From Limnanthes douglasii subsp. nivea (Eukaryota > Streptophyta > Magnoliopsida > Brassicales > Limnanthaceae), in NCBI GenBank assembly GCA_036936605.1, contig JAUPFV010000005.1, positions 149,731,195 to 149,795,194 of the forward strand: 64,000 nt of DNA, given 5' to 3'. Each line of letters opens with the position of its first letter. Positions within the stretch are counted from its first letter, which is position 1. The position numbers and the translations under genes were made by a program. Of this stretch, positions 1-57,014 are shown piece after piece. The notes under the pieces were generated by a model. It was given only the letters and a program-made list of their open reading frames with translations. It had not been told where the DNA came from and searched no databases.

Positions 1-321
1 GTTTTTCACGTTAACACCCAAGCAGCTAGTACTAGTTAAAGTTTTAGCATTAGATGGGGAAAATAGGGCTTCAGCAACCATATTATAAATACAGAGGGCT
101 CAATTAGTTTTATCTCAAATGTTTTTATCCAAAAAACCTGTAATCAATCCACAGCGATCACTTATCTAAATAATATTAAATTTCACCAAGGCAGGGATTC
201 ATGAGGACAAAATGTATTGTTAGTTTCACAGCCAACACTAACATGAAGAGTCCAGAACAATGCAAAAAAGAAACACATATTTGCTAAAAGTTAGAACAGG
301 AAATAACATAAATAGGCTAAC

Positions 322-1655
322 CTTTGAATTCTCCTCTTTGACCCATCTCCTGAAGTGAATACACGAAATCAACAATCCTTTTCTGCTCCGCAGCACTGAA
401 CACGGCCGTATGCAGCTCGAGTCCTTCAACAATGTTAACTAACTTCCCTTTAACTCTCTCAAAGCAAATAAAGTCTTTCTTCCTTTGAACATTCGTGAAG
501 CGAATATACTCCCTCTGCTCCCTAGTTAGCTTCGGCCTTCCGAAGCCCTTTGATTCAGAATTCTCATTTTCCTCATCAAATTCATCTTCCTGCGCCATAT
601 CTGCCCACGACATTCTTTCGTTCGATTTAGATTCAACTACAAATCTATTCTTAGGACTTTCTGGTACAATTTCTGATATCCCCTCTTCTAATTCCCAACC
701 TTTTAAGGAACCGGTGTCTGCATCTTCTCCTTCTTTACAGCTTCCCAAAAAATGTGTGTGGCCATCTTTCCGGCTGAGGGTATAGTTCACATCCAAGTTA
801 TCTTCACAGCTCGTAAAGGCATCTTTTGATGCTGAATTTCTTGTGATTGATAAAGACGAAACTGCATTCTCCAGCGAACTTACAGCTTCGGGAGTTCCAT
901 CAGGCTCTGTAATTAGAAAATTAATAAAGAACATAAGGCAAAGTACTTAACAGAAGGTATTGACAAGGGAAACATATGCAGCAGAAAGGGGCATATGATC
1001 CTGTTTAGAATAAAAGCCTATACAAACTAGAAACTATGGACTTAAAGTAGAAAGATTACAGAAACAAGGCAAAATCGATGGATAATTACTTCGACTACGA
1101 TCTTTACAACAAATAAATTACCTTTTAGCCGCTAAAGTTAAAACCCTAGATTTATGGTTTATCTTAACCAGCAAGTCATTAAAGGTATACAATACATAAA
1201 GACTAGTTAGAAGAAAGCCTGCCCATCCAAATTACTCAATTTTCATTCCGTACAAACATTGATCAGCAAAGAAACCCTTACATAAACACTAGTTAGAAGA
1301 AACCCTTGGCCCATCCAAATCAATTACTCAGTTTTCATTAGATACAAACGTTGATCAGCAAAGAAACTCTTCACCCATCTGAACCAATTACTTAATTTTT
1401 CCATAGCCAAAGTAAGAACTTTACTAAGAAAGAGGGAAATACTTTTGTGAAATTGAGAAAGAATGAAAAAAACAGAATACCTGGATCTAGAGAGTGAATC
1501 CGATCGGTGAGGTTCCTAATACAGCCTTGACAAAGATCTCTAGAGAGAAAAGGAAGCCATGTCGTGAAAAATTCTTTGGCGATCTTGAGTTCAGACTGTT
1601 GGTACCTGAGTAGGAATGAATCGTCGTCGGTTTCCGGTCGACGGAGGTTTTTCAT
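322..1655 (-). CDS. ALKBH9B: ALKBH9-type RNA N6-methyladenosine demethylase, N-terminal exons (partial)
   Basis: This is the start of a plant ALKBH9-type 2-oxoglutarate/Fe(II) dioxygenase; the family removes the methyl group from N6-methyladenosine in RNA. Two exons are visible on the minus strand: exon 1 from 1655 to 1481 (donor GT at 1480-1479) and exon 2 from 906 to 322 (acceptor AG at 908-907, donor GT at 321-320). Both junctions are in phase 1, so the frame is kept. Exon 2 has the family signature: an acidic MSWADMAQEDEFDEEN stretch, then KLTREQREYIRF, RKKDFICFERVKGKLVNI and a segment ending AEQKRIVDFVYSLQEMG. The catalytic jelly-roll with its iron-binding His-x-Asp...His lies further C-terminal and must be left of base 1, so activity cannot be judged here. 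The start at 1655 opens exon 1 about 100 bases below a TATA box. No stop or frameshift interrupts the two exons. Family assignment is firm; which ALKBH9 paralogue it is remains uncertain. Confidence 0.82.
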
Positions 1656-1770
1656 GGTCAGAAAATTTAGAGTGAAAACTTGTCAAAATTGGCTATTTGC
1701 AAGAGAGACTATTTCGAAAGTTTTGGGAGACAATTTAGAAAATTGAATAACCGAGGTTTGAACTTTTAGG

Positions 1771-1960: not shown

Positions 1961-2082
1961 GAGAAAAGTACCTGAAAATACCCACTCAACTATCTTATTA
2001 CCCGGCGGCACCCGCTTTTAACATAGTGTTACTTAATACCCAGACTAATAAATTGGACAAAAATACCCTTCCACTATATATA
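1961..2082 (+). repeat. MULE-1 left terminal inverted repeat
   Basis: It pairs with 12000-12147. The outer 32 bases match best (both contain TACCCACTCAACTA), then GTTACTTAATACCCA recurs on both sides, and both arms end at a TATA box near CCACTATATA. The inner part is diverged, so the inner limit is approximate. Confidence 0.75.
2075..2082 (+). promoter_or_regulatory. TATA box in left TIR, for the Ulp1-like gene
   Basis: TATATATA on the plus strand at the inner edge of the left TIR, at the same relative place as the TATA box in the right TIR. A leader would start near 2110 and run to a possible donor (AACAG then GTATGC) at 2367/2368, with the coding exon opening at 2884. The region to about 2420 lacks the TTCGCA motif, as expected of an untranslated exon. 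Confidence 0.5.
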
Positions 2083-2367
2083 CCCATTTTTCAATTCCAT
2101 CCCACTTTTTCGACCCTCCTATCACCCTAAACAAACGCAAAATTCTAATTTTAGAAACCACCAGAAAACAAACCGTTCGACTTCGTGATACTCTCTCTCT
2201 CTCTCAAACCCAGAAACCCTACAGCTTCTCACCTTCGTCACTATCGCACCGGTCAGCCTCTTTTACTCAGACAGTCACTAACACCTTCAAATCTCATTCG
2301 ACAAAGTTGTCGTGAAGTCGTCTCTGAAAACTTCTATCTCGTTCTCCGACCGGTGAAATTTAACAGG

Positions 2368-2883
2368 TATGCATTATGGTGGAAAGCGTACTTCTTTTTG
2401 CGTTTTTTTCGAATCTGAACCACTGTTTTCTCTTAATTCACGATAGGGATTGCTTTTGGTACTATAATGAAGTACCTACTGACGATAGTTGCTCAGTTTA
2501 TGGGTTTATAGTCGAAGCCAGGGTATAATTTTAGTTGCATGTAATACTGATACTCTCCTGAGAAATATTATGTATGTTAGATCTGCATTAGGTAGTTCAT
2601 TGTTGATTTTGGTGTTTGTTGCATAATTCCCAGATCCCTGCAACGTGCATGTAAAAAGTGTAACAGTTCGCATCCTGATCACCCACAATGCAAGCAATTC
2701 GCAGCTCGATTGTATAGTTATACTTATTTACAAACAGTTCGCAGCTTGAGATACATAATTCGCATCCTGTCAGAACGTATTTCGCAGCTTCTCTGTTAAG
2801 CCAGTATTTATATGTATGCGATTCGCAGCTTGTGATGCGAATTATTTGTGACATTCCAACTGATTTGTGTTTGTGCATAAAGC
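2368..2883 (+). other. Probable 5'-UTR intron and leader of the Ulp1-like gene, with TTCGCA motifs
   Basis: No coding sequence is seen. A plausible donor is at 2368 and the first coding ATG is at 2884. From 2665 to 2845 there are six TTCGCA cores; the last is paired with a TGCGAA at 2836. The intron end just before the ATG is not clear. Confidence 0.4.
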
Positions 2884-5800
2884 ATGACAACAAAACCCAG
2901 CTACTACAGATCAGGGTTGGTGAGCCTTCTGAAGCTACTGAAAGGCATGGGTATTACAAGGGCCCACATTGAAGCGTGTAGAAACACACCCTTCTACACG
3001 CTTCTGAAAACGGCGTTCGAAATCCGTAATGAGGAAGAGCTGCCTAGGAAAAAATTTTACTCAATCATTCAGTATATCCTCGAGAAATTCTCTCTGGAAA
3101 GAGACGCCTTTAAGATTGGCAACAAGTATGTAAAGCTAACTACAAACGATATCAAGATCATATTCGGGCTGAGGCATGGCACCGAGAAAATGGAGTTAAC
3201 AAAAACCGGCGCTTTTCACAACAAGTATGAAGCCGGCGAGGAGGACGAATCAAGGATGATGAAGAAATACTTCATGTCAAAAACTGGCAGGAAAGCATCA
3301 GCTAGTAATACCAAAACAATAACAAATGCCATCATAAAGGTACGTCTAAAATGGACTTCATCTTTATAAAGCAAGATTCTGTACATTTCTAACTTAGAAT
3401 GTTGTCATTGGTTTTACAGGAGGGTATACAGAAGGCCATAAACGAAGGAGGGGAACATGAATTGGAAGACGTGGCGAGGCTGCTGATACTGTTTTTGTGC
3501 TCCACGCTATTCTACTCCGTATCTGGAGATATCTTGGGCTGGAGCACGGTTTATTACGTTGAAGACCTCAACAGAATAAACAATTACGACTGGGCTGGAT
3601 CGATTCTGTTCAAGCTTCGACAGTCTATCAGGAGTTGCTTAGCAGTAGAAAGAGCCGATAAAATCGTCGGCTGCGTCGCCCTTGTAGTTGTAAGATTGAT
3701 CTATTCAATATCACAATTAGTTATGTACATAGCACCGTGTTGATAAAACTTGTCCCCATGCAGCCTTTCATCATGGAGCACACAACAATCGGCCACGAGG
3801 TAGCGAAGCCAACCTCGATACCAAGGTTCTTCAAATAGTTGGGGTTAGAGTGCCACGCATCGACCATGGGCTATCTTATTAAAACACCCTACCTGGATGC
3901 TGACGAGGTATAAGCTCAATATATGTATTGAACTTGGGGTGCATACAGTTCGCAGCCTATGATGCGAACTGCTTATAAAAATATCTCAAACATTTCGCAG
4001 CCTGATATGAATTTTACTTCGCAGCTTCATGTTCAGCACAGTTCGCATCATATGTTTAATACTTAGTTCGCATCATATGGTTTACACTTAGTTCGCATCA
4101 TACTGACCCATAATCATTTCGCAGCTTAACATGCGAAATGTGATTTAAAACCACACAGTTCGCATCATATGATGCGAACTGATTATAAAAAACAATTTGT
4201 TTGTCTACACCCTCATTCTTTCGAAACAATTAATTTACTTACATGTGCATCTGTTGGTAGGTTTTAGAAGGTCCATTACAGCTTACCGAGGCTGAAATTG
4301 AAGCTTTCGGAGAAAGAGAAGATGATGAACATGGTGAAGATGCAGAAGTAACGGTACCTCCTTCACTGGAAGAAAGACCTAGGAAGAGGTCGAAAATCAC
4401 AGCATCAAAACCAAAAAAAAGGAGACCAGCATCACAGAATGTAACAAATAAGGTGATGTCTCCCACACTCGAACACCCAACACCACCCGAGCCATCGATT
4501 CCACCACCAAGACTCCCAAAGAAAACAATTCCACCACAACCCAAAGGCAAATCCAGGCAAGAGCCCTCCGACACCGACACAACCAGTATGAGTGAAACAA
4601 TCGGTGATTATTTATTCAAACGCAGAAGCGACGCTGATCCCGATATTGCTGCTCAATCAAAGCGTTTGAAGACGTACGCCGACAAGAACAAGTACGAGCG
4701 AAAAATAGAAAAACAGGCCAGAGAAGTAAGTATGCCTTGAACCTTAAATAATCACTACAATCAGCACTTAATATGTTTATAAAAAAGTTTGCTATCATTT
4801 TTGCAGCTGAAAGAATTGAAACGCAAGATAGCAGATCTCGAAGCACAACAACTCCACAATGCTATCTCTCTGCCAATCTGCCGTACTGAAAGCCCAATAA
4901 AGCAGATACCAGCAGCACTTCCAGAGGGACAAAAATCAACTGATCAGCAAGCATCCGAGTCTAATGCTGATCAGCAAACATTCCTTCCTGGAGTACTGCC
5001 GGAAGAAAGGGATGATGATGCCCACAATTCACCCATCATGGAGACACATACAGAGAAGGTAAATAATGTAAGTAGACCATATGATGTTATTAAACAAATA
5101 TCAGGACTATTGTGCAGTGATGGCCAACCGTTTCGCAGCTTAAGATGCGAATTATGTAATAAACTGGTGGTCTGGTTATTACACATATATATCAGGTCAG
5201 GGTGCGAAATATGTACTAAACTGGGGGAATTTATAACATAGATATCAGGTCAGGATGCGAACTATGTAATAAACTGGGGGACTGTATAACATATATATCA
5301 GATCAGGATGCGAAATAGGTAATAACGGAGTGAATGTATAACATAGATATCAGGTCAGGATGCGAAATATGATTACACGATGATTAACATATGCTTTTGT
5401 ATGAAATAGGAGACCGAAAGACAACAACAACACCAGCAGAAACAGCAACACCAGCAGCAACAACAACACCCCCAACAACAAGGAGAACAGGAACAACAGC
5501 ACCAACAAGAAGAACACCGCCAGAAACAACAAGAAGAACAACAAAATGAAGAGCAACAACAAGAAGAACACCCCCAGCAACAACAAGAAGAACAACAACT
5601 CGAAGAACACCAGACGCCACAGCTTCAACTCGAAGAACACCAGACGCCACAGGTTCAACACGAGGACCGGCAACAAGAGCAACAACAAGGACAAGAAGAA
5701 CAACAACAGCAGCAACAGATAGCCTTGGCGAAGAGAGAAAGGCTAACTCAAGAGGTAGCACCTCAAGAGTCAGAACCTGTCCATCCCGGTGAGAAGACAG

Positions 5801-7251
5801 AACTACTCAGCCAGGAAGGACAATCCTTAGAAGACAAAACCAATTCTTCGGTGGAACCTCAAAGACCAACGGTGCTGTCAGCAAAGTCTGAATTGCTAAG
5901 CCAGCGTCAAACTGTAGGCCCGGTAACAAATCAACTGCCAGCTCCAGAGTCCCACGATAACACAGTAGGTTTACCTGATGCTTTTGTTGATGGTATTAGT
6001 ACTCAAGTTTCACAGACATTTTTAAATGAAATTGATAATGTATATTACGATTCTATAATACAACGGTCTCTGGAGAACATGTCGCAGGATGACATTAATG
6101 ATTTCTGCCGACACGATCCAGCCTCTATGCCGAACAAGTCAACGGCAGTGGTTGTCGCTGACCGTGCGGTAAGGCCTACTTACAATGATTTCGCATCATA
6201 ACACACTACCTTGTGGCAAATGCTGAAATATGTATTACAAACAAAAATCAGGGTATGATGCGAACTGTTCAGTGGAACCTCGAATAGTTCGCACCCTACC
6301 CTGATATATAATAATAAATGTATTTAACTGCTACCTTACAGTTCGCAGCCTAAGCTGCGAACTGCTTAGACTCGTTGCACTTATAATCACTGACGCCCTC
6401 TACTTTTGATTTTTGATTCATAATAAGCTCGAGACAGTTAATGAGATAGAGGAGCCAAGTTTTGCGCTACTGACACAAACGCAGCCTCAAGTGGCAGAGG
6501 AAGAAGAAGAGTTCGTAATAACAATGCGGGAACCGCCAGTAGTAGAATACAGCGATTGGCCAAAGAAAACCAAAGTAACTGAGCGTATCGATCTGGCACA
6601 ATACCACAAAATACAGCTGGTGAAAGCCTACGAGAGCGACACCCCTGATCCAGTGGTATGGCAGTTACCGGAGTCCAAGTTTACGTACGGAATCAGGCTG
6701 CAAGCGAGTGACCTCATGGCACTACCTTTAGAACAGGAGCTGGACGTAAAGGTATCCAATTGTCAACCAACTTTATTTTCAATGTTTCAAATATGTATTC
6801 TATATTTAACATAAATCTACAACTCCTTTGTTAGCTTATCGATGCTTGGATTCGAAAGATGCTTGAAGATGCAGACTACAAAGTTCCATGCACTCAAGCT
6901 ATTGGAGAGCATCACGACGCCATACTGATTTCTGGCATGACTGCGGTAAGTTTAGCTCACGTAAATAGACCAAAGTTCTCAGAAATGTTATCACTTTAAT
7001 ATACTCTTGCTTGGATGCAGCATCAAATGAAATCAGGGTGGCAAGTGGAAAATCTGGTGGACATGGCTTTTAGGAAGGCGCGCAAAAATTCCAACATCAT
7101 CATGGTTACAGTGTGCACCGAGTCGAAGGACAATACAAACCACTGGACGTTGCTCGTCATCGACATTGACGGAAGAACAATTTCAAACTACAACTCGCTT
7201 CTGCCTAAGCTTCATGCCATAGACACCACCACAAGAACACCTGCACTACTA
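2884..7251 (+). CDS. MULE-borne DUF1985/Ulp1-like gene, nine exons, one internal stop
   Basis: A transposon passenger gene of the DUF1985 plus Ulp1-like peptidase type. I read exons 2884-3339, 3420-3689, 3764-3907, 4261-4725, 4807-5058, 5410-6168, 6428-6751, 6835-6945 and 7021-7251. All are multiples of three with phase-0 introns and GT-AG borders, about 1004 codons. Exons 1-3 hold the DUF1985-like part (YVKLTTNDIKIIFGL). Exon 4 is basic and proline-rich, with KPKKRR as a likely nuclear signal; exon 5 starts as a short coiled coil; exon 6 opens with about 100 Gln/Glu/His-rich residues. Exons 8-9 hold the Ulp1-like end with NHWTLLVIDIDGR, where the His fits the C48 catalytic His. The expected Asp of the following DS motif is Asn (YNSL), and no catalytic Cys box follows. 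TAG at 3836-3838 interrupts exon 3, probably a former TGG. An active SUMO protease is unlikely. The acceptor of exon 7 (AAG) is the weakest call. Confidence 0.72.
3946..4181. repeat. Cluster of 26-bp palindromes in intron 3
   Basis: Three units of exactly 26 bases lie here. 3946-3971 has arms CAGTTCGCA and TGCGAACTG around an 8-base loop. 4115-4140 has arms CATTTCGCA and TGCGAAATG around an 8-base loop. 4156-4181 is a perfect palindrome with half-site CAGTTCGCATCAT. Half-units (TTCGCAGCC, TTCGCATCA) lie between them. The intron is 353 bases, against 74-83 bases for introns 1, 2, 7 and 8, which hold no copy. Confidence 0.85.
5138..5372 (+). repeat. 53-bp tandem repeat in intron 5 carrying the TGCGAA half-motif
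   Basis: About four copies, with the phrase ATCAGGTCAGG starting at 5191, 5244, 5297 (one mismatch) and 5349. Each is followed by a TGCGAA half-site, then a stretch like ATGTAATAAACTGGGGG. The first partial copy begins near 5138 with a complete TTCGCA...TGCGAA pair. Confidence 0.8.
5410..5724 (+). repeat. CAA/CAG/GAA repeat coding a Gln/Glu/His-rich tract
   Basis: In the reading frame of exon 6 this stretch codes about 105 residues that are nearly all Gln, Glu and His, with a duplicated block (LEEHQTPQ, twice) near 5610-5655. It directly follows the acceptor at 5409. Both sense and antisense frames stay open because of the biased composition; only the plus frame is joined in phase to neighbouring exons. 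Confidence 0.8.
6169..6427 (+). repeat. Intron 6 with 26-bp palindrome at 6339-6364
   Basis: The unit at 6339-6364 has 11-base arms CAGTTCGCAGC and GCTGCGAACTG around CTAA. Half-sites lie at about 6190, 6256 and 6284. The intron otherwise shows nothing. Confidence 0.75.
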
Positions 7252-7563
7252 GTAAATATTCCAAACTATACACTTAAAGCTGAACAAATTTTAAGCATGC
7301 ATGCTGCGAAATTAGATCTGGTATGCTGCGAATTACTGAGTAATCAGGATGTGTTTTCGCAGCCTGTCCATAACGTAATTCGCAGCCTATCTATGTTGGA
7401 CACAATTCGCAGCTTGTTCACAACTCAATTCGCAGCCTATCAAGGCTGTCATACAATTCGCAACCTAAGATGCAAATTGTGTATGATTTATTGTCATATA
7501 ATTCGCAGTCTGAGGATGCGAATTGTATGTCACCAACTGTTTTTGTTTTTGTGCATGCGACGT
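7252..7563 (+). repeat. TTCGCA motif cluster where the Ulp1 C-terminus would be expected
   Basis: About eight TTCGCA or TGCGAA cores lie within about 220 bases, including a 26-base unit at 7454-7479 (CAATTCGCA, 8-base loop, TGCAAATTG with one mismatch). No reading frame here shows the Cys-containing end of a C48 peptidase. The cluster may be an intron leading to a last exon near 7564-7721, or may have replaced the original 3' end. Confidence 0.6.
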
Positions 7564-7721
7564 TGATGGACGTTGATGTTGAAGCTGAGGATAAAGAAGA
7601 ACATGCGAAAGATGTTGAAGCTGAGGATAAAGAAGAGAAAGAGAAAGAGAAGGAGAAAGAGAAAGAGAAAGAGAAGGAGAAAGAGGAAACAGTTGGTGAT
7701 GAATCATCTACCAACTGCTAG
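7564..7721 (+). CDS. Possible last exon: acidic then Lys/Glu-repeat tail
   Basis: An open frame gives an acidic stretch (DVEAEDKEEHAKDVEAEDKE) followed by about seven KE repeats and the end DESSTNC, then TAG at 7719-7721. The DNA is a GA-rich microsatellite (7635-7690). It could be the C-terminal exon of the Ulp1-like gene, but no clear acceptor precedes it and no known domain is present, so this is tentative. Confidence 0.3.
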
Positions 7722-7916
7722 AGTTGGTTTTTGTTTTTTGTTTTTTTTGAAATGCAACTAACTAGCAACAGCAGCTTGTAGTGATATGTGTAAACAGTTG
7801 TTAGTTTCTGGATATATTTTGTAATCCTCCTTTTTGAAATCCAACTTGTAATCCTCCTTTTTGTAATCCAAATATATTTTGTACATCATTCGCATCTTAA
7901 CCTGCTATGTTACTCA

Positions 7917-8422
7917 TTTTCAACCGTACTGAATATCCTGGTATTTTATTAAATGACAATTCGCAGCTTATCACATGACAAATATCAGGACAACTAACTG
8001 AACCATGATTCGCATCACAACTCTGGCCCTAATTCGCAGCCTATCATGCGAAACGTACAATATGATAAATGTTTGATGTGATTTTACCAATGATTCGCAT
8101 CCTGTTAAAATTTCACATAATTGAACATAATTCGCATGTAATCCTGATAGATGTTTGTAATCCGACTTGTAATCCTCCTTTTCAACCTTACTGAATATCC
8201 TGGTATTTTATTAAATGACAATTCGCAGCTTATTACATGACAAATATCAGGACTCCTAACTGAACCATGATTCGCATCACAACTCTGGCCCTAATTCGCA
8301 GCCTATTATGCGAAACGTATAATATGATAAATGTTTGATATGATTTTACAAATGATTCGCACCCTGTTAAACTTTCACATAATTGTACATAATTCGCATG
8401 TAATCCTGATAGATGTTTGTAA
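7917..8422 (+). repeat. Direct duplication of 244 bp (7917-8160 and 8179-8422)
   Basis: Two copies 262 bases apart, differing at only about a dozen sites, in the spacer between the two convergent genes. Each begins TTTTCAACC and ends GATAGATGTTTGTAA, and each carries six TTCGCA-type cores, including one TTCGCAGCCTA pairing with ATGCGAA. The duplication is younger than the motif's spread. Confidence 0.88.
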
Positions 8423-8665
8423 CAAATATGTATGCATATTGTACATAATTCGCAGCACATGATGCGAAATGTTCACAACTCCAATAGTAGCAAAAACAAA
8501 AAACACAGGAATGTACAAATTTCTAGTTTTCTGTACAGAACAATAACTATGCTACACAAATAAATGTCCTTAAACTGGAACATCACAAGTCCTCCGGTTA
8601 TGGCCTGATTTCGAACATCGGCCACACCTTAACTTCTTGGTTGAGATTTCTCCTCTAGAAGGGAT

Positions 8666-11123
8666 TCACTTTTTCTTAGGCCTTCCGGAGCGTCTCTTAA
8701 CGTTCGGAGGCAGAACTTCAACGAAAGAAGGATCGTTAGCGCTGGACCCTTCGCCAAAATCAGTTAGAGCTGGTATGCTGAAAGAGTAACTTTCCCTGTA
8801 ATTCTTAACCGTAAAGAAGGGTTCTATTACAGTCAATGGATCTTGGTCAGTGTATTGTAATGCCGCTAGAGCATGAGCACATGGAAAACACTCTTGTTGC
8901 CATGATCCGCATGAACATTTGAAATCCAACAGATTAACAACAGCCACAGGAGTCGAAAATACTTCGAACATGGCGGAAGAGGACTTACGTACTACCCAAC
9001 TTCGGCACATGTCAACATTCTGCTTTAGCTGCTTCTCGTACTCGGGAACCAAATTAGTACTCCAGCTGAGACCTTCTTCGTATCTCCGTGAAACCTGAGT
9101 CATAAGCAAGACTCTAATGCAATCAATAAATTCAACAATTGGTAAGCCGCAATATTTTTTGATCTGATTGTTAAACGATTCAGCTGCGGTAGAAGCCATA
9201 GAGCCGTATCGCTTCCCTTTTACGTAAGCCTGGGCATACTTTTCAGGGGGTAAATTTGCAAGAAAATCACTCATTCTCTTACCACCTTCACATAAAAAAC
9301 CTGTTAGTATCTCTTTAAAAGTTCTTGACTGGGAGCATAAGCAAGACGGTGGAAGAAACTCAACATCTTTTTTTTATACTCCCTGTTAGTATGTTCCAGT
9401 TTGGCTCTCAAATTCTGCATGAGATGGAAATAACGGTACGCATGATAGCAGTTGGGATACAGGACAGAAACAGCATTAACAATACCAGAATGACGGTCTG
9501 AAATAAATGTGATCTGGCGATCCAGCAAATGTGGTTTCAAACACCCCAAAAACCACATCCAATTGTCCCAATCTTCAATGCTAACTACAGCAACAGCAAC
9601 AGGGAATAGTCCTGGAAAAAGGCAGATCAATTAAACACTACAACAGTATGGAAACGTTTAAAAATTGGCAACGATTCGCATGGTGTCCTGTAACAATTCG
9701 CAGCTTGTCATGCGAAATGTGTTTGACATTTTATTGTTCATGCAAACGGTTCGCAACTTGTTATATGAATTCGCAGCTTGTGGTAAACTTTAAATAATAC
9801 CCAACTCAAGATGCGATGTAAGTACAGTTTATTCAGCATAATACCTAATTCGCAGCCTCAAATGCGAAATGTGAGGACCACAACACTGCTTAATTCGCAT
9901 CACCTGGTGCGAATTGCATCAATATTTTCACACAAAAAACATCGTTCAGATTAACTAGATAAATGTAACTAACCGTTGTTTCCGTCCTTTGCTACAGCAG
10001 TGAGCAATGTACCCTTGTACTTGCCATATAAGTGGGTTCCATCAACAAACAACATTGGACGGCATGAATGAAAACCACTAAGGGACGAACCGAATGCTAC
10101 AAAACAACGCTTGAATCGGTTTCCAGCTGACAACTCCAACTGGCAGTCTGAAGTAATATCCTGGCTCTTCAAGCGTTTGAAGTATCCGCTTAGTAAACTA
10201 AAAGAACTTGAACTATCTCCAAAAACTCCCCTCATAGCCTTCTCTAAAGCATTCCATGACAAACGATAAGAGATATCAAGACCGTAATCTTGTTTGACAG
10301 TCGATTGTATGGTTTTGGCTGTCAACGAATGGCAGGTCCGGAGAGAATCCTGAATTTCCTCTGCAATCAAATCTGATGTCAAATGCCTGTGCCGCTTATG
10401 ATTATGCTTCTGGGAGAAAACAGGACTGCAAGTATGGTACGGGAAATGCTTCTTTATCGTCATAAGGCCGGTGCTTGAGTCAATAGATGCATAAACCCTC
10501 CATTTGCACCCACTTGTGAGCTTATTTTCACAATAAGCAGTGATCTTATTTGTTGTGTTGTGCAGGTATTTGAAAGAAAAACCACGCTCTAACGCAAACT
10601 TGCACAAGGATAACCTCAGACCGGCAGCACCTTCTTCAAAAGCTTGACCCACCCATGTAATAGCATCAGCCCAACCAGCAGTAGCAAGTTGTTTTTTCCT
10701 CTGATCAGAATTAACTAAACCGTTACTACTCTCCCCGCTAACTATTTGATCAAGAGATGGTTCTACCAAAACCAAGCTACGCTCTTTACACTTACCACCA
10801 GAATCCTTACCACCAGAGCTCTTATCAACATAACTTTTATTACCAGAACCCTTATCGAACACGTGTTGTTCTATGAGAAAACTAACCCGTTTTAAACGCT
10901 CCAAATCAAGATATAACACCAACCCAACAAAATCACTCTGGTTATTAAAGAAACAATTATTGTGATCCCCGCAGGAGTAAGTAATTAGGTACTCACCTGT
11001 GGCAAGCTCCTCCCACGTGTTCTCTACATAAGCTTGGATACTTTCGAAGCTTTCAAACTCGGTGAAAGGCACAATTGCAGTTTGGTGACCATATTTAAAA
11101 ATACAAACTCGTGATTTAGACAT
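8666..11123 (-). CDS. MULE-1 transposase (MuDR type), two exons, one frameshift
   Basis: The element's transposase, which would bind the terminal repeats and cut and join DNA in the nucleus. Exon 1 runs from 11123 to 9974, exon 2 from 9611 to 8666; the junction is in phase 1 and reads through DGNNGLFPVAVA. Exon 1 has an N-terminal region, the Mutator DNA-binding domain (CKFALERGFSFKYL to CKWRVYAS) and the first catalytic Asp in LFVDGTHLYGKYKG (near residue 361). Exon 2 has the second Asp in FISDRHSGI, the Glu in STAAESFNNQ, a SWIM zinc finger (CSCG...C.CAHA) and a basic end GRPKKK. Near 9317-9320, in a run of A (T on the coding strand), the frame shifts by one base: upstream it soon ends in TAA, and downstream the other frame continues the protein with no intron signal. 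Domains are otherwise complete, so the break looks recent. Confidence 0.85.
9694..9912. repeat. Palindromic motif cluster in the transposase intron
   Basis: The intron 9973-9612 holds a 26-base unit at 9694-9719 (CAATTCGCA, 8-base loop, TGCGAAATG), another pair near 9848-9868, and a near-perfect palindrome near 9892-9915 (AATTCGCATCACC... to TGCGAATT). Neither exon contains the motif. Confidence 0.8.
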
Positions 11124-11853
11124 CTCTTAACCTGGACAATACAAGTTATTAGTTATTAGTCTCAAAAACTAGGTGCAAAATATTTACTACTGGATCAAAC
11201 AATTCGCATCCTAAAGTGCGAATTGTGTATACATACACGCTCTATTCGCATCTTGTCCTGATATTTGTAGGTAACAAAGTCCTGATATTTGTCATTAGTC
11301 ACAAAACTGTGCAGATTATTTACTGCACCATCAAACAATTCGCATCATAACATGCGAAATGCGTACATACATCTAGTAATTCGCAGCCTGTCCTGATATT
11401 TGTGTATATCTACGTATATATATTCGCTGCCTGTCCTGATATTTCTATGTAACACCGATCCTGATATCTGTTTCGAAATACAATACTCTAACTGACCTAA
11501 AAACTCGTAATCTACACATTACCCACAAACTAAAGCAGTACCAAATTAGAATATAACATCAGAAAACAAGGACGTAACTATATAGTGAACAATATTAACG
11601 AAACAGATCACTATAACAAAAAAAAACAGAGAAAAGCTCGAAATCAGGCAATGGCATCTAAAAACAGTAGACTAGAACCTATTCCAACAGAGAAAACGAA
11701 TAAAAAACTTCGAAATCGGTAGGTAATTACCTAAAAAGCTCGCAACACGATTACTTGTAAGCTACAAGATTCCAAAAAGTCGTGATGAACTCCTGTACGT
11801 ATAAAACAGAGGTTAGACAGGTCTAACACAACAACTTACATAAAGAAACAAAC
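11124..11853 (-). other. Probable 5'-UTR intron of the transposase gene, with 26-bp palindromes
   Basis: On the minus strand a donor (CTAAAG then GTTTGT) lies at 11853-11852 and the ATG at 11123, so this stretch is probably an untranslated intron. It holds perfect 9-base-arm units at 11200-11225 (CAATTCGCA / TGCGAATTG) and a one-mismatch unit at 11336-11361, plus half-sites and several CCTGATATTTG phrases. No coding sequence is seen. Confidence 0.5.
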
Positions 11854-11990
11854 CTTTAGCAGCTTCCGATCACCGGAAAATGTGATTTAAACCCAGCTCG
11901 TGGTGGTTAGTAGGGTTAGGTGGTTAGAGCGGCTAACAAATTCAAATCTTCAAAAAGCAAGAAAAAATAGAAAGAAAACAGAAAATAACG

Positions 11991-12000
11991 TTTATATAGT
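11991..12000 (-). promoter_or_regulatory. TATA box in right TIR, for the transposase
   Basis: The minus strand reads ACTATATAAA at the inner edge of the right TIR, mirroring the left one. Transcription would start near 11965 and run leftwards through an untranslated exon (to 11854) into the transposase. Confidence 0.5.
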
Positions 12001-12147
12001 GGGTTAAGGGTAGTTAGGGTATTAAAATAAAGTTAGGTTGTTAGTGACAATAAGGTAGTTGAGATGGGTATTAAGTAACAATTGATCAAACCTTGGGTTG
12101 TAAGTGACAATTGAATAGTTGAGTGGGTACTTTAGGTGCAATTTCCC
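12000..12147 (-). repeat. MULE-1 right terminal inverted repeat
   Basis: Reverse complement of the left arm: strongest in the outer 32 bases, then GTTACTTAATACCCAT shared further in. It is about 30 bases longer than the left arm before the TATA box, so small indels separate the two arms. Confidence 0.75.
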
Positions 12148-12156
12148 ATTCTTTTA
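12148..12156. repeat. Target-site duplication, right copy, of MULE-1
   Basis: ATTCTTTTA, identical to 1952-1960. Confidence 0.88.
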
Positions 12157-15029: not shown

Positions 15030-15721
15030 GTAGTTTGAAATAATAATGGGTAAAAAAATTATGGTAAATGTATTCGTATTTAGACTCGCCATTTGTCTTA
15101 GTAGTATGGCTTGCAAACATTCATTTGAGTTCAAGTATCAAAAATTTGTCTCGTATTTTGTAATGATCATAATTTGCTAAGCGTTAATTCTCTTATAAAA
15201 TTTGGTCTCAACTTCAAGTGATCGTTGACATATATCATGAAATACTGAATCTTGAGTTATTACTAATATGTGGCGTGTCATGCATCTCATGTGCATCGTT
15301 GGTCTTCTACTTTTATAACTACGTACACATGAGTGAAGTACAGTAATGATATTTGACATTCATGATTGTTAAAAGCATAGAATTTGCTGATTTTCCGATG
15401 AGATTGATCTGAATTATTACGAAATCAAGATCTGTCCCACATATAAAGAGGATATTATGGATGTTCGTTTAAGACCATAATGAAATGTATGTACACAAAT
15501 ATATTTTTATATATAAAATAATTAATCATGTAATATATACATTTTTATATATATTAACCTTGTAGTGTTTGAGCTTGAGATGTAAAATAATCTCTTTTAA
15601 AATGCATGGGGTAAAAAAACACTAGTAAACTTTTATCTAAAGTTCAATAGGTTACATAGATTACTAAAAATTGAATGTAGCATATTTTGTCTCATTTATT
15701 ATCGTATTAATCTATGGCATT
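14061..15721. other. Intergenic AT-rich DNA with a hairpin and two TA microsatellites
   Basis: No gene is seen. A 38-base imperfect inverted repeat lies at 14175-14212 (inner arms AAGTTCTGC / GCAGAACTT). TA dinucleotide tracts lie at about 14739-14766 and 14955-15026; open frames over the second one are artefacts of the repeat. Confidence 0.6.
14955..15026. repeat. (TA)n microsatellite, about 72 bp
   Basis: An uninterrupted run of alternating T and A; a shorter one lies at 14739-14766. Confidence 0.95.
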
Positions 15722-16145: not shown

Positions 16146-17639
16146 AAAACCAGCAAAAAAAAAACTGTTTTGATATTAGTTAAAAATAAGTTACTACTCT
16201 TTATTGGTTTGATGAAATTTACAGGTGTTCGGAAATATTTTAAGGAAGGGGTTGTATCTTCAATATTAGTTTTATCTTATTACGTGGCAGAGTATGATTT
16301 TTTGCTTTAACTATTTGCATAATAAAAAAAATGAAAAATCAATGCTTATTATGAGAATAATTCTCCGAAGGGTGTTCATGAAGACTTTATGCATCATCTG
16401 ATTCCTTCACCGATGATATGGTCATTAAATATTATGTTTGACAACATACTTGTGGGACAATATACTTGTGGGACTATTTTTTGAAAAAAAGAGAGTAAAA
16501 AAACAATTATCATCGGATTCGATTGCTAATGGGATACAATCTTGTATTAGATCCAAAAATGATGTGATAACTAAAAGTACATGATCAATTGTAAAGAGAG
16601 ATTATGGTTTATATATTTCGTATCGACTTTCATGGATTGCGTTAGAGAAATATAGGAAAGTTATTTACAAAGATAGTTTATACTTAATTTAATTTGGTTA
16701 AATTACTTTAAATCTTTAGAGAGTCTTGATATAACAAGTGACTACTCTCTCGAATATACTAATGAAACTAATTATTTTATTTTATTTGGATCTTGTATCA
16801 ACGTTTTTCCATTTTTCGTCCATTTTTATCCATTGGTAAAATTTTCTTGATATGAGCCATGCCTAAATATGAAAAAAATAATAAGTTCTTAAATGTGAAT
16901 TATGAATCTTGTGTAAATTTATAATAGTTGGTCGTGAATTGTTGGTTATATCATACAAAAGTCGCAAATGAAATGGTAAAAATGAAATGAAAATTGCAAA
17001 CATCAACTATCAATCGCGAATAATATATTAAACAAAAAACATGAACCATCTTTTGCTCGATCTTTTAAACACGCTTCACGAGTTTAGCGGAGAATAAATT
17101 GTAAAACGTGATATACATATTATTATAAAATGTGAGTCATGATTCACGTGTTACTCATGACGCGACTCATGAATATTATGGAATTACAATATGCAAATCA
17201 TAAATCACTTTTAATAACAATACAAATCGCGAGCATTAAAAATTAAAAAATTCTGAAATCGCCAAAAGTTTATCGTAATATGAATTAAAAATTGATATAT
17301 TATTACATGTTTTTCTATCATAAGTATATATGTATTTTCCTGATTGCATTTGATGAAGTTGGATCAGAAGATATGGATAACTTGTTATGGTTTCTTGAGA
17401 TGTTGAAACCTCACCTGATGGACCATCAAATAATAATGTTGAAACCTCACTAGTTAATATCATTTGTTCTTCGTTTCCCTATTGTTATCAAACCTAATTT
17501 ATTTCATGTTATTGGTAATTCAAAGTATGCATTCAGGAGTACACCCTCAAATGCTGGGGTAATGATGGTTCACAAGTTTTAGGAAAGTGATTATGTCTTT
17601 AATCTTAGTATGTACATTAAATATATAAAGGATCTTATT

Positions 17640-18235
17640 GATGATAAAGGTAAAAAAATTCAATTTTTTTTCCAAAATTTACATATAGAAAGATATTCAT
17701 GTGCATTTTTTAAAAGAAAACTATATGGTTGCATGGCCTTTAGTCATGCTGAGTTTTTTAACCATCAAATCAAAGGTTTTTGTAGTCTTCAAATCAAAGG
17801 TTTGATACGAAATCAACCATACTTTCAAATCAAAGGTTTGTGTAGTCTTCAAATCAAAGATTTGTAGTCATAAAACTTATGAATGTTAATCTTATGTATT
17901 TCAAATATTCTTGTGGTATGTGGAAAATAAATTCTTTTTCTTGCTCATTTCATGGCAGCCATACTATTCATTAAGGATAATCATATGAAATATATCGAGC
18001 CATACTATTATACAAACTAGTATATGGAAACTTACTCATATATCATTCTAACTTTGACTACTTTTATTTAAGCCTCTGCATCTAGTATTTGTTCTTCATA
18101 AATTCTCCCTCCAAAATTGAAACACAAAGCTAGCAGAAGTGTATTCCATCCAGAAAGAGAAGTACTAATCTAAATATAAAATGTATTGGTTCTTTTAAAT
18201 TCGGTCATAGTGGACGTTCATGCCAATATTTTTTA
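17640..18235 (+). pseudogene. MULE transposase C-terminal fragment, plus strand
   Basis: Frames read HIERYSCAFFKRKLYGCMAF, then AEFFNHQIKGFCSL, matching the MULE-1 region around the catalytic Glu (YGSMASTAAESFNNQIK). Here the AES has become AEF, so the Glu remains but its surroundings are changed. Further on, CGMWKINSFSCSFHGSH is a degraded SWIM finger, and a zinc-knuckle-like end (CIGSFKFGHSGRSC) follows. Short direct repeats of AAATCAAAGGTTTG interrupt it at 17765-17865. It is opposite in orientation to the remnant at 22294-24600. Confidence 0.6.
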
Positions 18236-20309: not shown

Positions 20310-22431
20310 TAATGAATAAGATTATCGCTCACGAATCGTGAATATAATGAAATGGTAATAGTATCATGAATGAATAATAAAATAAAAATTAAATTGCAAA
20401 ATAAGAATTACAGAAATACGAACATATAAGTAAGAGCATAAAAACACGAAATCGTGAACTAAGAATACTTGATAGATTTTATATCACATATATAGCTTTT
20501 TATTTGATAATAAAATTATAGAGCAAAAAATAGGAATTAATCGGCGTGCAACAATGCTCTTTCTTTAAATGAACAAATCGAAGGGAATAATTGTGTTGCT
20601 AAATCCCTAACTTAGAGAATAATTGAGCAAGACATTCTAATCAAGATAAGGAATATGTTCTCAAAATAAAAAAAAATAACTGACTAGCCTATTATCTATA
20701 AAAAGGCAACAATACTTCATATGTTGCAACCTTATGAGACAGTGGAACAAATACATAAATCGGTTGATACAACAAGTTCATACAGAAGAAATGAAACAAA
20801 ATACATATTTCTAGAGAGTTCATAAAAAAATAATACATGTAGAAAAAACTAAAAAAATAGGTACAAAATGTTGCAGGACTTTCTCCTGCTATATTGGTAA
20901 ATACAAATAAGGTTTAAGAAGGTGTACATGCTAATCCCTTGCCAACAGATAATTAAAACAGTTCAAACATGTTAAAAAAATGAGGTTAAAGCAGGTATTC
21001 AATCTCCTCACCCACAAGAAAAATCTAAAACAAATTCCCCAAAAAGAAAAATAAGGTACAAACAGTTGTACAAGGTCCTCATCCATAAAAAATACATTAG
21101 CAAGTTCCACCACAAAAGAAAAATGAGGTACAAATAGTTTTATAAGCTCATCAGCAAGTTGCTACAGGAAAAAGGATTATTTTCCAGTATATATTATCCG
21201 CTAGCATATGATAAGCAAATTGAAAACGTGGAATTTGATTGGCCAATCAAAAATTAAACAAAGAAACTAATAATTGAGGAATACGTTTCTTCTTAGGTGT
21301 TCCAAGCTAGGTGAAAGGACAATATGAGATTGATTTTAACTAGAAGCTTCACCAAAATTAGTTAAATTGAATGAATAAGATTATCATTCACAAATCGTGA
21401 ATAGAAATGATATCGTAATGGTATCATGAATGAATAATAAAAGATAAATTAAATCGCGAAATAAGAATTAAAGAAAATACGAAGATATAAGTAAGATCAC
21501 ACAAAAAGAAATCATGAACTAAGAATACTTAATAGATTTCAATTCATATAGATAGTTTTTATTTGAGAATAAAATTATAGAGAAAAAAATAAGAATTAAT
21601 ATACGCTCAACAATATTCTTTCTTGAAATGAACAAATCAAAGGGTTTAATTATGTTGATAATTCCTCAACTTAGAGAATAATTGAGCAAGATCTTCTAAT
21701 CAAGAAAAGAAATATGTTCTCAAAATAAAATAATCAGAAATGGGTAGCTATTATTTATCAAAAGCACTAGTACTCCATATGTTCCACCCTTAATGGATAG
21801 TGGAACAAATACATAAACTAATTAATACAACAAGTTCAAACAGAATAAATGAAACAAAACGCATATTTCCAGAGATTTCATAAACAAGAATGCATTCAGA
21901 AAAAAAAGACTAAAAAAAATAGTTTCAAAAATTTGTAGAACTTTATCTTGCTATATTAGAGAATAAAAAAAACGTTTCAAGAAGGTGTACAAAGTAATCT
22001 CCTGTAAAAAAAAGTAAAACAGTTATAACATGTTTGAAAAATAAGGTTCAAACACGTGTTCAATCTCCTCACCCACAAGAAAAATCTATAACAAATTCAC
22101 CAAAAAAGAAAAATAAGGTACAAAAAGTTGTACAAGGTCCTCATCCACAAAAAATACATTAGCAAGTTCCACCACAAATTTAAAAGGAGGTACAAACCAT
22201 TTTACAAGCTCATCAGCAAATTGCTATTGGGAAAAATGATTATTTTCTAGTATATGATCCGGTAGCATATGATAGCAAATTGAAAACACGGAATTTGATT
22301 GGCTAATCAACAATGAAACAAATAATTCAAGAACCAGTTTCTCTTTAGGTGTACCAATTCTCATTTTCAAGATAGGTGGAAGGACAATATGAGATTGATT
22401 TGAGCTAGAAGCTTCACCAAAAGTAGTTAAA
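20310..22431. repeat. Tandem duplication of about 1.06 kb (20310-21367 and 21369-22431)
   Basis: Both copies begin AATGAATAAGATTATC (20311 and 21370) and end with AGGACAATATGAGATTGATT...GTTAAA. They differ by many substitutions and small indels. The second copy runs on into the MULE-2 transposase; the first ends in the duplicated last codons of that gene. The duplicated unit is therefore the 3' end and downstream region of the transposase gene. Confidence 0.85.
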
Positions 22432-24600
22432 GGGCGTATGCTCCGAGAATAAGTTTCCGTAGAAGAGCTTGGACTATAGTATGGCTTCACATATCTTGAT
22501 GGGTTCTCATGTATACTAAATATATCAGCTAAAGCATATGAACAATGGAAACATTCAATTTTCCAAATACAACAAGAAGTGTTCTTGTTGAAAAGATCAA
22601 CAACCATAAACGGTTTTGATTGAACTTCAAACAATACTTTTGTAGTCGACAGAACAATCCACATACAATATTCTTCAATGTTTCTTTTAATATTTTTCTC
22701 AGTATTATGACACAACTTCTTATTCTAAAGTAAACAATTAGAGTAATGTTTTGACATCTGGGTCATTAACGTAACCCTAAGTTTTCAATAATTCCAAAAT
22801 CGGTAAACAACAAAATTATTTAATTTAATGATTAAAAGACTTAGTTTCACTATAAGCCATAGGACCATATCGTTTACCTCTAAAGTAAGCACATGCGTAC
22901 TTTTCATAAAAGAATTTTTCAATGAAAGTAACTTTTGTTGACCACTTTCTTATTGGGCGCATAAGCATACTTTTTCAGTAGCTTGACCATCTTTTTTGTA
23001 AAAATGTTTTGGTGTACGTCTCAATGCATGTTTCAGATTTCTAATAAGATGATAAAGACTATATGCATTTTAGAAATGAGAGAAAATAGTTGAGACAATG
23101 TTAGCTATACCTATGTGACGATCACATATAAAAGCTATTTGACAACCAAGTAAATGGGGTTTTAATATCTCCAAAAAATATTACCAATTATCATTATCTC
23201 TAGCCCCAACAATAACAGTTGCTACTCAAAAAATACGTACATAAGATATAATATACTAAGTATATAGTCAATAATGTAGTTTAACAACCAACTAAAAATT
23301 TATATTTCTACAACATCAACCTAATTACGGGACCACTCTTACTCATAATTCAACAATAAGTTTAAATGCAATATAATAACAAGTTAACACGTAATTTGGC
23401 AAACAAATAGAATCTGTATTTTTACAATATAATAGTAATTATCCACAACATAATCACAATTATTTTTGCAACCATAGTTTTTAACACCAATTAAAAAAAT
23501 CCATTTACACATATTGTTTAAAGAAAAAAAACATCATATTATTACCATCTTTAGCTATTGTAGAAAATAAAACCCCTCGATGTATCCCAATCAAAAATAT
23601 TTCATCGATAAAGATCATGGCAAGACAAGAATGAAAACATTTTTGATAAGCTCTGTAAGATATAAAACATCGTTTAAAAAATGGTTGTCTCCATCATAGT
23701 CAAACAGATAATGACTTGTGATGTCCAAGCACATTAATGCTTTGAAATAAACTTTTAAGATACTGAAAGAAGTAAATCTATCTCCGTAAAATTCCCTTTG
23801 GATTTCTCTAAATCAAGATATGACCAGAGATACGAAATATTGAAGCCAAAGTCGGATTTAACATCGAATTCAGTATTTTTTTGAAATAATATTATTTCTT
23901 GAACTAATGCCATCACTCATCTCGTTTGATATCAAATTGGATGTCAAATGCTTTTTATTTTCCATCGAGAAACCATGATAACACTTATGATCACCCACAT
24001 ACCTTTTAATAACCATATATCCATTCGAAAACCTCTATGGGCATCCTTTGCCCTATTTCATAAAATAATGAACACTAAATTTGTCTTTCTTATTATGAAT
24101 AAATTCATAACTAAATCCATGTTCGACACCAAATCGAGATAAAGAAAGACGCAGAACAATAAGACCACCTTCAAATACTTGTCCTACACCTTGGATACCT
24201 TCAACCCGATTCTGATAGCAAGTTATTTTTCTTATGTTAGAAAAATTAACACATGGACTAGGTTCTCCAATTAATATATATTATCTTCAACTATCAAATC
24301 AATATTGTGAAATGATACTCTATCCAAATCAGCATCCATACCTAAACGTATAGTTTCAATAGTATAATTAATCTCAATATTGATATCTTGACATGTACAA
24401 CGGCCAACCAATTCAACTAATGATATAAAATTAGATTCACTGGATTAACATCAGCTCTTATATTCATCAATTAAATAGTTGAAACTAAAACGACTTCTGA
24501 CCAACCAATCCCACTTGTTTGTTACGAAATCAACCATACTTTCATAATTTTTAAAATTATTAAGGAAACGGACAAAAACCTCATTATTTATGTTTAAAAT
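22294..24600 (-). pseudogene. MULE-2 transposase remnant
   Basis: Minus-strand remnants follow the MULE-1 transposase from N to C terminus. An N-terminal piece (24672-24451) has ESMVDFVTNKWDWLVRSRF. The region around 23550-23640 reads FIDEIFLIGIHRGVLFSTIAKDG, where the DGTH motif is lost after the Asp. Around 23100-23220 there is HLLGCQIAFICDRHIGI with the second Asp. Around 22850-22900 the YGPMAYSET block has lost the Glu context. The C-terminus (22715-22294) is an open frame with a SWIM-like CCIWKIECFHCSYALA and PLTTFGEASSSNQ. Many stops and frameshifts lie between, and AT-rich spacers carry TTTYGCAACC motifs. It is more diverged than MULE-1. Confidence 0.72.
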
Positions 24601-56098: not shown

Positions 56099-57014
56099 TA
56101 GGGGTGAGCATTCGGTCGGTTCGGTCCAAAACCGATCCGAACCGCATAACCTAAAATTAAAATCCTTATATTTTCTCAAACTGAACCGAACTGTTGGACC
56201 GATCCGAACCGAATAACCTAAAATTAAAATCCTTATATTTTCTCAAACTGAACCGAACTGTTCTAGATGTATGAACCGAACCGAACCGACATATAAAATT
56301 TTGGTTAATTTGGTTCGGAATATAATTGAACTGAAATTTTTGTCAGTATTGTACTCTCTTTTGGCATATATACGATGTATGGTTCAACATTTAGTTGGTT
56401 AATATAAAAAAACACAAAATATAAACAAATGTATAAGTTAATTTATTATTGTGGTAATCCAATTAATAGAAAACAAAAAGCTATAGTTTTTTAATCAAAT
56501 AAAGAGCTTTTGATTGAAGTAAAAGTATTTACAAATAGAATGCCAAAAAAATAAGGCGACATATTTCCCACCATATTTCCCACAAAACATTGCAGGAAAT
56601 ATGGTGGGAAATAAGTCTGAGATGGGCATATTGTATTACATAAATATATTAATATAAACAAATGTATAAGCTAAAGTAATTATTAGGATAACCTAAACAA
56701 TTGAAGACAAAAAGCTACCGATTTATTTCTAAGTTTAATATAATTACCAGGCTGATCAAATTAAAGCAGAGAAATAGCAACCGTGTATAACTAATAAAGC
56801 AGAGCAGTGCTGATCGGATTAAGCACTTAGCAGGATTATTTGTCTATAACAGTCGTGTATAACAAGAATAATTATAACAGTCGTGTATAACAATCACAAT
56901 GGTAAAATGAATTTCGAATAGGGTTTTAAATTCAGATTTAGGGATAGTGATATTGTGGCGGTGAGATTGATTTTGAGATTTGTACGATATATAGACTTAG
57001 TGATTTAGGGTTAG

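What the first reader, a model, noticed from the sequence alone, without database searches (positions are those of the whole stretch)
1961..12147. A dispersed 26-bp palindrome family fills the introns and spacers of MULE-1 but no exon
By eye there are about 45 TTCGCA and 20 TGCGAA cores on the plus strand in 10.2 kb; about 5 in total would be expected by chance. At least eight form units of exactly 26 bases with 9-base arms and an 8-base centre: 3946, 4115, 4156 (perfect palindrome), 6339, 7454, 9694, 11200, 11336. They occur in introns 3, 5 and 6, the transposase intron, both probable 5'-UTR introns and the central spacer, and are absent from exons and from the short introns. The arms co-vary (CAGTTCGCA with TGCGAACTG, CATTTCGCA with TGCGAAATG, CAATTCGCA with TGCGAATTG), which points to a palindromic unit that spreads or is converted as a whole. 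It could be a transposase or host-factor binding array, an RNA hairpin, or a very small parasitic repeat. I know of no description of this.
Basis: partly seen in the sequence, partly recalled or inferred. Interest (0 to 1): 0.86.

Follow-up and report, generated by a model that had tools for sequence, protein, structure and literature searches.

The report
Transposon's own anti-silencing docking array
A large family of plant jumping genes carries dozens of copies of one short DNA word in its long introns and spacers but almost none in its coding parts, and these are likely docking sites for a protein of its own that would keep the host from silencing it.

Summary
The 10.2-kb MULE (1961-12147, 9-bp target-site duplication) has 69 TTCGCA/TGCGAA cores against 5 expected; 68 of 69 are noncoding. 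Genome-wide, TTCGCA-N8-TGCGAA occurs at 15,513 places against 10 for a reversed control; other gaps are rare. The arms do not co-vary: the unit is two half-sites, often single or paired with TGATAT at the same distance.

In 29 sister copies private variants hit cores like other noncoding DNA, but variants shared by three or more copies are absent from cores (0 of 108 columns; 45 of 761 in the same introns), so cores were probably selected while the element spread. Two relatives from a distant MULE family, found by transposase and not by motif, carry a one-way dialect, GTTTCRCATCTA. Both families have a convergent second gene with a plant-mobile-domain-like N-terminus.

Best reading: recognition arrays for a transposon-encoded, VANC-like anti-silencing protein. 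Binding and demethylation are untested. The logic is known from Arabidopsis VANDALs; the PMD-type gene, paired geometry and two dialects are new here. New variant of a known kind.

The parts
1961..12147 (.). The MULE copy, flanked by the 9-bp duplication ATTCTTTTA at 1952-1960 and 12148-12156
2884..7251 (+). Second gene: 9 exons (2884-3339, 3420-3689, 3764-3907, 4261-4725, 4807-5058, 5410-6168, 6428-6751, 6835-6945, 7021-7251), each a multiple of three, one in-frame stop; PMD-like N-terminal domain, Gln-rich repeats, weak Ulp1-like stretch; a last exon near 7590-7721 is doubtful
   Evidence: gene model is mine, without transcript data
8571..11123 (-). MuDR-type transposase gene, exons 9974-11123 and about 8571-9611; broken by a frameshift and an in-frame stop
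2667..2841 (.). 5' array of the second gene, 7 cores incl. the unit at 2819
3946..4181 (.). Intron-3 array, 11 cores incl. units 3946, 4115, 4156 (perfect palindrome) and a 25-bp tandem run
5129..5371 (.). Intron-5 array, 6 cores incl. unit 5129 and a 53-bp tandem array with four TTCGCA-N8-TGATAT pairs
6190..6364 (.). Intron-6 array, 5 cores incl. unit 6339 and one TTCGCA-N8-TGATAT
7305..7525 (.). Array in the last intron / 3' part of the second gene, 9 cores
7889..8471 (.). Central spacer array, 15 cores incl. units 8030, 8292, 8446 and a 262-bp tandem duplication
9675..9916 (.). Transposase-intron array, 9 cores incl. units 9694, 9846, 9891
11200..11385 (.). Array upstream of the transposase, 6 cores incl. 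units 11200 and 11336 and two TTCGCA-N8-TGATAT pairs

Best explanation
The repeated word is likely the recognition site of a DNA-binding protein that this transposon family is predicted to encode in its second, PMD-type gene, and that protein would coat the introns and spacers and lift host silencing, as VANC proteins do for Arabidopsis VANDAL elements. Shown: half-sites align as YADTTCGCAKCNT; two half-sites meet tail to tail at a fixed 14-bp start-to-start offset; TGATAT can stand in for the second core at that offset; same-strand half-sites follow each other with a 24-25-bp period; in 13 elements 675 of 678 cores lie outside protein-similar stretches; variants shared among sister copies avoid the cores while private ones do not; a distant MULE family with the same gene pair has its own one-way dialect. 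Inferred: cores were kept because elements with intact arrays spread; paired sites bind a dimer; the binder is the PMD-gene product. Untested: binding, demethylation, mobilisation.
For: 69 cores against 5.0, 68 of 69 noncoding. 15,513 palindromes against 10 in the genome; gaps 4-7 together 725, gaps 9-12 together 612; TTCGCA-N8-TGATAT 6,281 against 68. 12 further copies: 606 of 609 cores outside protein-similar stretches (8 of the 12 were picked by the motif, 4 by second-gene homology). Three tandem arrays: core columns 48 of 48 invariant, others 239 of 277 (P 0.0015). Sister copies: shared variants (three or more copies) 0 of 108 core columns, 45 of 761 in the same introns (P 0.004), private 15 of 108 against 150 of 1398 (P 0.34). 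Second gene evolves faster than the transposase: 50-60% against 73-84% identity in diverged copies. Second dialect in two elements picked without the motif, genome-wide 16,771 against 81, with a PMD-like second gene. Published precedent for the logic (PMC5735166).
Against: No binding, methylation or expression data. DUF1985, present in VANC, was not found; PMD and Ulp1 hits are below Pfam cut-offs; homology rests on one alignment to a plant MULE PMD (84 against a shuffle maximum of 52). In the dialect of the window the motif did not change although the second protein fell to 50-60% identity, unlike the fast turnover reported for VANDALs. The shared-variant test covers 18 of 69 cores, and against coding columns it is not significant (0 of 108 against 38 of 1339, P 0.11). 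VANC21 arrays run in one orientation; here 46 and 23. No 10.5-bp phasing. Core CpGs in sister copies vary as often as other CpGs (11 of 36, 19 of 60), so present copies show no sign of protection. Two old related MULEs in the window have neither dialect.
Confidence: 0.6

Rival explanations
1. The sites are bound by the transposase or an accessory protein as cis-elements for transposition, as TnpA binds subterminal repeats of En/Spm.
For: Many short sites per element, paired geometry, transposon-wide distribution including family 2.
Against: No exact core in the outer 706 bp (left) or about 760 bp (right); sites fill introns and the central spacer. The transposase is 73-84% identical in diverged copies while the second gene is 50-60%, which does not by itself decide.
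Confidence: 0.15
2. The sites bind a host transcription or splicing factor that raises expression of the transposon genes from their introns.
For: Placement in long introns and 5' regions of both genes; shared core TTCGCA in two distant families could reflect one host factor.
Against: Sites also fill the spacer between the convergent 3' ends (15 of 69); dialects differ in flanks and in orientation rule within one genome.
Confidence: 0.14
3. The arrays are passive by-products of tandem duplication in noncoding DNA that tolerates it.
For: Tandem arrays of 25, 53 and 262 bp carry the motif.
Against: Cores are the invariant part of those arrays (48 of 48 columns against 239 of 277); the fixed N8 gap recurs in unrelated surroundings genome-wide; shared variants avoid cores.
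Confidence: 0.06
4. RNA hairpin, or a tiny palindromic parasite that moves as a unit.
For: 14 units with complementary 6-bp cores, one perfect over 26 bp (4156). In family 2 all near-perfect sites lie on the sense strand of the second gene, which an RNA role could also explain.
Against: No arm co-variation (24 of 42 against 23.2); 41 of 69 cores lack an exact TGCGAA at +14; no flanking duplications; no palindromes in L051 and L052; sites in the transposase intron and spacer keep the element's orientation, not that of the transposase transcript.
Confidence: 0.03

Closest known systems
VANC / VANDAL anti-silencing systems of Arabidopsis (PMC5735166 parts 1-3 of 6; PMC10398659 introduction and passages)
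   Same: MULE; short motif dense in introns, spacers and terminal noncoding DNA and not in exons; tandem repeats; family-specific motifs; second gene more variable than the transposase, with repeats in the protein.
   Different: No DUF1985 found, PMD-like domain instead; motif has a CpG and forms tail-to-tail pairs at a fixed gap in family 1 (VANC21 motifs run in one orientation); 9-bp duplication and recognisable similar ends; motif core shared by two distant families.
KIU genes: VANC genes with an Ulp1 domain in eudicot MULEs (PMC13317346, passages; the primary paper, Sasaki et al. 2022, was not held)
   Same: Second gene of a MULE with a C-terminal Ulp1-like stretch.
   Different: The Ulp1 match here is partial and below the cut-off (E 0.095).
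PMD-bearing MULEs (PMC6446971 table passages; PMC5418596 passages)
   Same: Second gene with a plant mobile domain, antisense to the transposase in several MULE groups; an anti-silencing role was proposed there as speculation.
   Different: No target array is mentioned in the passages I saw.
En/Spm TnpA and its subterminal repeats (PMC2613891 passages; PMC10398659 passage)
   Same: A transposon protein binds many short sites of its own element and is linked to demethylation.
   Different: Those sites are subterminal and the element is CACTA; here sites fill the interior.

Membership tests
VANC / VANDAL system | MULE transposase in the same element | tested here: met
   MULE, DBD_Tnp_Mut and SWIM matches above cut-off
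VANC / VANDAL system | Second gene with DUF1985 | tested here: not met
   Pfam scan to E 10 lists no DUF1985 (filters drop most matches above about 0.1)
VANC / VANDAL system | Ulp1 domain (in KIU-type VANCs) | tested here: inconclusive
   Peptidase_C48 E 0.095, 13 bits against a cut-off of 20.7
VANC / VANDAL system | Dense short motif in noncoding, not coding parts | tested here: met
   68 of 69 in the window; 606 of 609 in 12 further copies
VANC / VANDAL system | Motifs in tandem repeats | tested here: met
   25-, 53- and 262-bp arrays; 26-bp arrays in L052
VANC / VANDAL system | Motifs arrayed in one orientation | tested here: not met
   Window element 46 and 23. In family 2 it is met: 36 of 36 and 32 of 32 sites with at most one mismatch
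VANC / VANDAL system | Related families have different motifs | tested here: met
   YADTTCGCAKCNT pairs against one-way GTTTCRCATCTA; two family-2 elements only
VANC / VANDAL system | Protein binds the motif and removes DNA methylation | not testable with these tools
   no binding or methylation data
PMD proteins of MULEs | Plant mobile domain | tested here: inconclusive
   Pfam PMD E 0.011, 15.4 bits against a cut-off of 34.9; alignment to the PMD of P0103 scores 84, 1000 shuffles mean 31.3, maximum 52 (one of two PMD-bearing proteins fetched was compared)
En/Spm-type transposition array | Sites subterminal | tested here: not met
   first core 2667, last 11380

The most novel reading that the evidence does not exclude
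The PMD-type second genes that many plant MULEs carry are sequence-specific anti-silencing factors, and each MULE lineage writes its own private address into its introns and spacers. Here two dialects built on one core (a tail-to-tail pair code with a fixed gap, and a one-way code) fill a single genome with tens of thousands of docking sites, so that each lineage frees only its own copies from silencing.
Probability: 0.5. Interest if true: 0.82.

Novelty: new variant of a known kind. Interest (0 to 1): 0.72.

Why it matters
If true, sequence-specific anti-silencing is not confined to DUF1985-type VANC proteins of VANDAL elements but extends to PMD-type MULE genes, whose function is described as undetermined (PMC5418596, passage). 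The contrast of private and shared variants offers a way to find such target motifs from genome sequence alone, and the two dialects with their own proteins form a ready specificity-swap experiment.

Tried and rejected
Arm co-variation (rejected). Helical 10.5-bp phasing (none; a 24-25-bp period instead, the best of 32 periods tried). CpG protection: noncoding DNA without cores is CpG-poor (O/E 0.55) and in the window only 1 single-substitution variant was seen in full context against 37 intact, but among 29 sister copies core CpGs vary as often as other noncoding CpGs; dropped. Structure: exon 1 alone, without alignment, gave mean pLDDT 45, so no fold search was made. PDB sequence searches: nothing credible. 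NCBIfam: nothing. Protein search with the second gene: none of 3862 candidates at E 0.001 for residues 1-330 and none of 991 at E 10 for residues 780-1004, although the same database gave 451 transposase relatives, best ones about 39% identical, from Malus, Prunus and Camellia. The first sister-copy alignment is not used: part of the loci were in the other orientation; redone. Two old related MULEs in the window (22338-24277 minus, 16361-18137 plus): no second gene found by tblastn at E 0.01, no site of the second dialect with fewer than two mismatches; both are decayed, so they are weak controls.

Papers. PMC5735166: parts 1-3 of 6. PMC10398659: outline, introduction, passages. PMC13317346, PMC8756742, PMC6446971, PMC5418596, PMC2613891: passages. 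Others: listings only. Ten searches were made; none of the listings or passages I saw names this motif, but the letters themselves were searched for once only (with Mutator-like and intron), in an open-access library. The content of Sasaki et al. 2022 beyond what PMC13317346 says of it is recalled (helical periodicity of motifs, gain and loss of VANC domains).
Full report
What is there. The window lies in a 1.78-Gb genome in 633 contigs. Its element at 1961-12147 is flanked by ATTCTTTTA on both sides. It has two convergent genes. The minus-strand gene is a MuDR-type transposase, broken in this copy by a frameshift and an in-frame stop. The plus-strand gene has nine exons in my model, every one a multiple of three bases, open throughout except for one stop. 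Its N-terminal part aligns with the plant mobile domain of a plant MULE protein (score 84; 1000 shuffles mean 31.3, maximum 52), while Pfam sees only weak PMD and Ulp1 traces.

The motif. TTCGCA or TGCGAA occurs 69 times, 5.0 expected; 68 of 69 are noncoding. Aligned on one strand the 69 sites give YADTTCGCAKCNT. When TGCGAA follows TTCGCA within 6-60 bp, 14 pairs sit at exactly +14 (gap N8); with jittered sites no single offset collected more than 4 in 5000 trials. TGATAT occurs 7 times at the same +14 and at most 3 times at any other offset scanned. So the 26-bp unit is two tail-to-tail half-sites, of which the second may be TGCGAA, TGATAT or nothing recognisable. The arms do not co-vary (24 of 42 against 23.2). 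Same-strand neighbours show a 24-25-bp period and no 10.5-bp phasing. In three tandem arrays all 48 core columns are invariant, against 239 of 277 other columns.

The genome. The palindrome occurs at 15,513 places, the reversed control at 10. Gaps of 4-7 together give 725 (control 68) and of 9-12 together 612 (control 52). TTCGCA-N8-TGATAT gives 6,281 against 68. From the first places listed on one contig I fetched 8 of 9 groups; 7 of the 8 carry long matches to the second gene, with or without the transposase, and the eighth only a 31-residue transposase match. Together with four copies chosen by second-gene homology, 606 of 609 cores lie outside protein-similar stretches. In six diverged elements the second gene is 50-60% identical to that of the window, and in the five of them with a transposase match the transposase is 73-84%; the half-site is nearly unchanged, but these six were found by the core. 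The exon-1 search scored only 150 of 8,562 first-look candidates, so copy numbers are not known.

Selection. The 29 best-matching copies other than the window are 97.7-98.9% identical to it over the stretch compared. Cores collect private variants like other noncoding columns (15 of 108 against 150 of 1398, P 0.34), but variants found in three or more copies are absent from cores (0 of 108; 45 of 761 in the same introns, P 0.004; random placement of 6-mers P 0.008), and one core column has a variant in two copies. The simplest reading is that copies decay freely once inserted, while copies that gave rise to others had kept their cores. This is inference from 18 of 69 cores; against coding columns the difference is not significant (38 of 1339, P 0.11).

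A second dialect. The old MULE at 22.3-24.3 kb in the window gave a query that knows nothing of the motif (150 of 7,750 candidates scored). I asked for four better-preserved relatives and got two. Both carry arrays of GTTTCRCATCTA: 36 and 32 sites with at most one mismatch, all on the sense strand of their own second gene, none in protein-similar stretches, no TTCGCA-N8-TGCGAA. With two mismatches 2 of 48 sites in L051 fall in such stretches and 0 of 45 in L052. Genome-wide the exact GTTTCGCATCTA occurs 16,771 times against 81. Their transposase pieces match that of the window at 37-62%. The second gene of L052/L054 aligns with that of the window at 43-47% over most of the PMD-like part. The window element has one GTTTCRCATCTA site within two mismatches.

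How it would work. VANC21 binds YAGTATTAY in noncoding parts of VANDAL21, motif density matters, and binding is tied to loss of methylation (PMC5735166). By analogy, the product of the second gene would bind these arrays, perhaps as a dimer at paired sites, and free its own family from silencing. Ikeda et al. proposed an anti-silencing role for MULE-borne PMDs as speculation (PMC5418596). Every step from binding onward is untested here.

Is it a VANC system? In anatomy it works like one. It is not filed as one: DUF1985 was not found, the N-terminus is PMD-like, and in family 1 the sites are not in one orientation. Hence 'new variant of a known kind'.

Noticed in passing
L053 4886-5069 (C1:63857200-63867199): Another transposon-like gene (417-aa open frame, transposase match E 3e-6) has a 32-bp array with four TTCGCA-N6-TGCGAA palindromes just upstream of that frame: perhaps a third dialect.
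   Followed up: partly
genome-wide, e.g. C1:6123113 and C1:8441890: TTCGCAATTTCACCAAATTGCGAA (gap N12) recurs identically at many of the listed places, probably a separate repeat.
   Followed up: no
window 16361-18137 (+) and 22338-24277 (-): Two old, decayed MULEs related to the window's transposase.
   Followed up: partly
window 317-946 and 1392-1682 (-): Host-gene-like open frames just left of the element; the resemblance to an ALKBH10B-type RNA demethylase is recalled, not tested.
   Followed up: no
L051 and L052: About as many GTTTCACATCTA as GTTTCGCATCTA sites (CpG to CpA): decay or a second accepted form is open.
   Followed up: no
window 52-64 kb: Excess of CCGAAC/CGGTTC words, partly a 67-bp tandem repeat at 56131-56262.
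   Followed up: no
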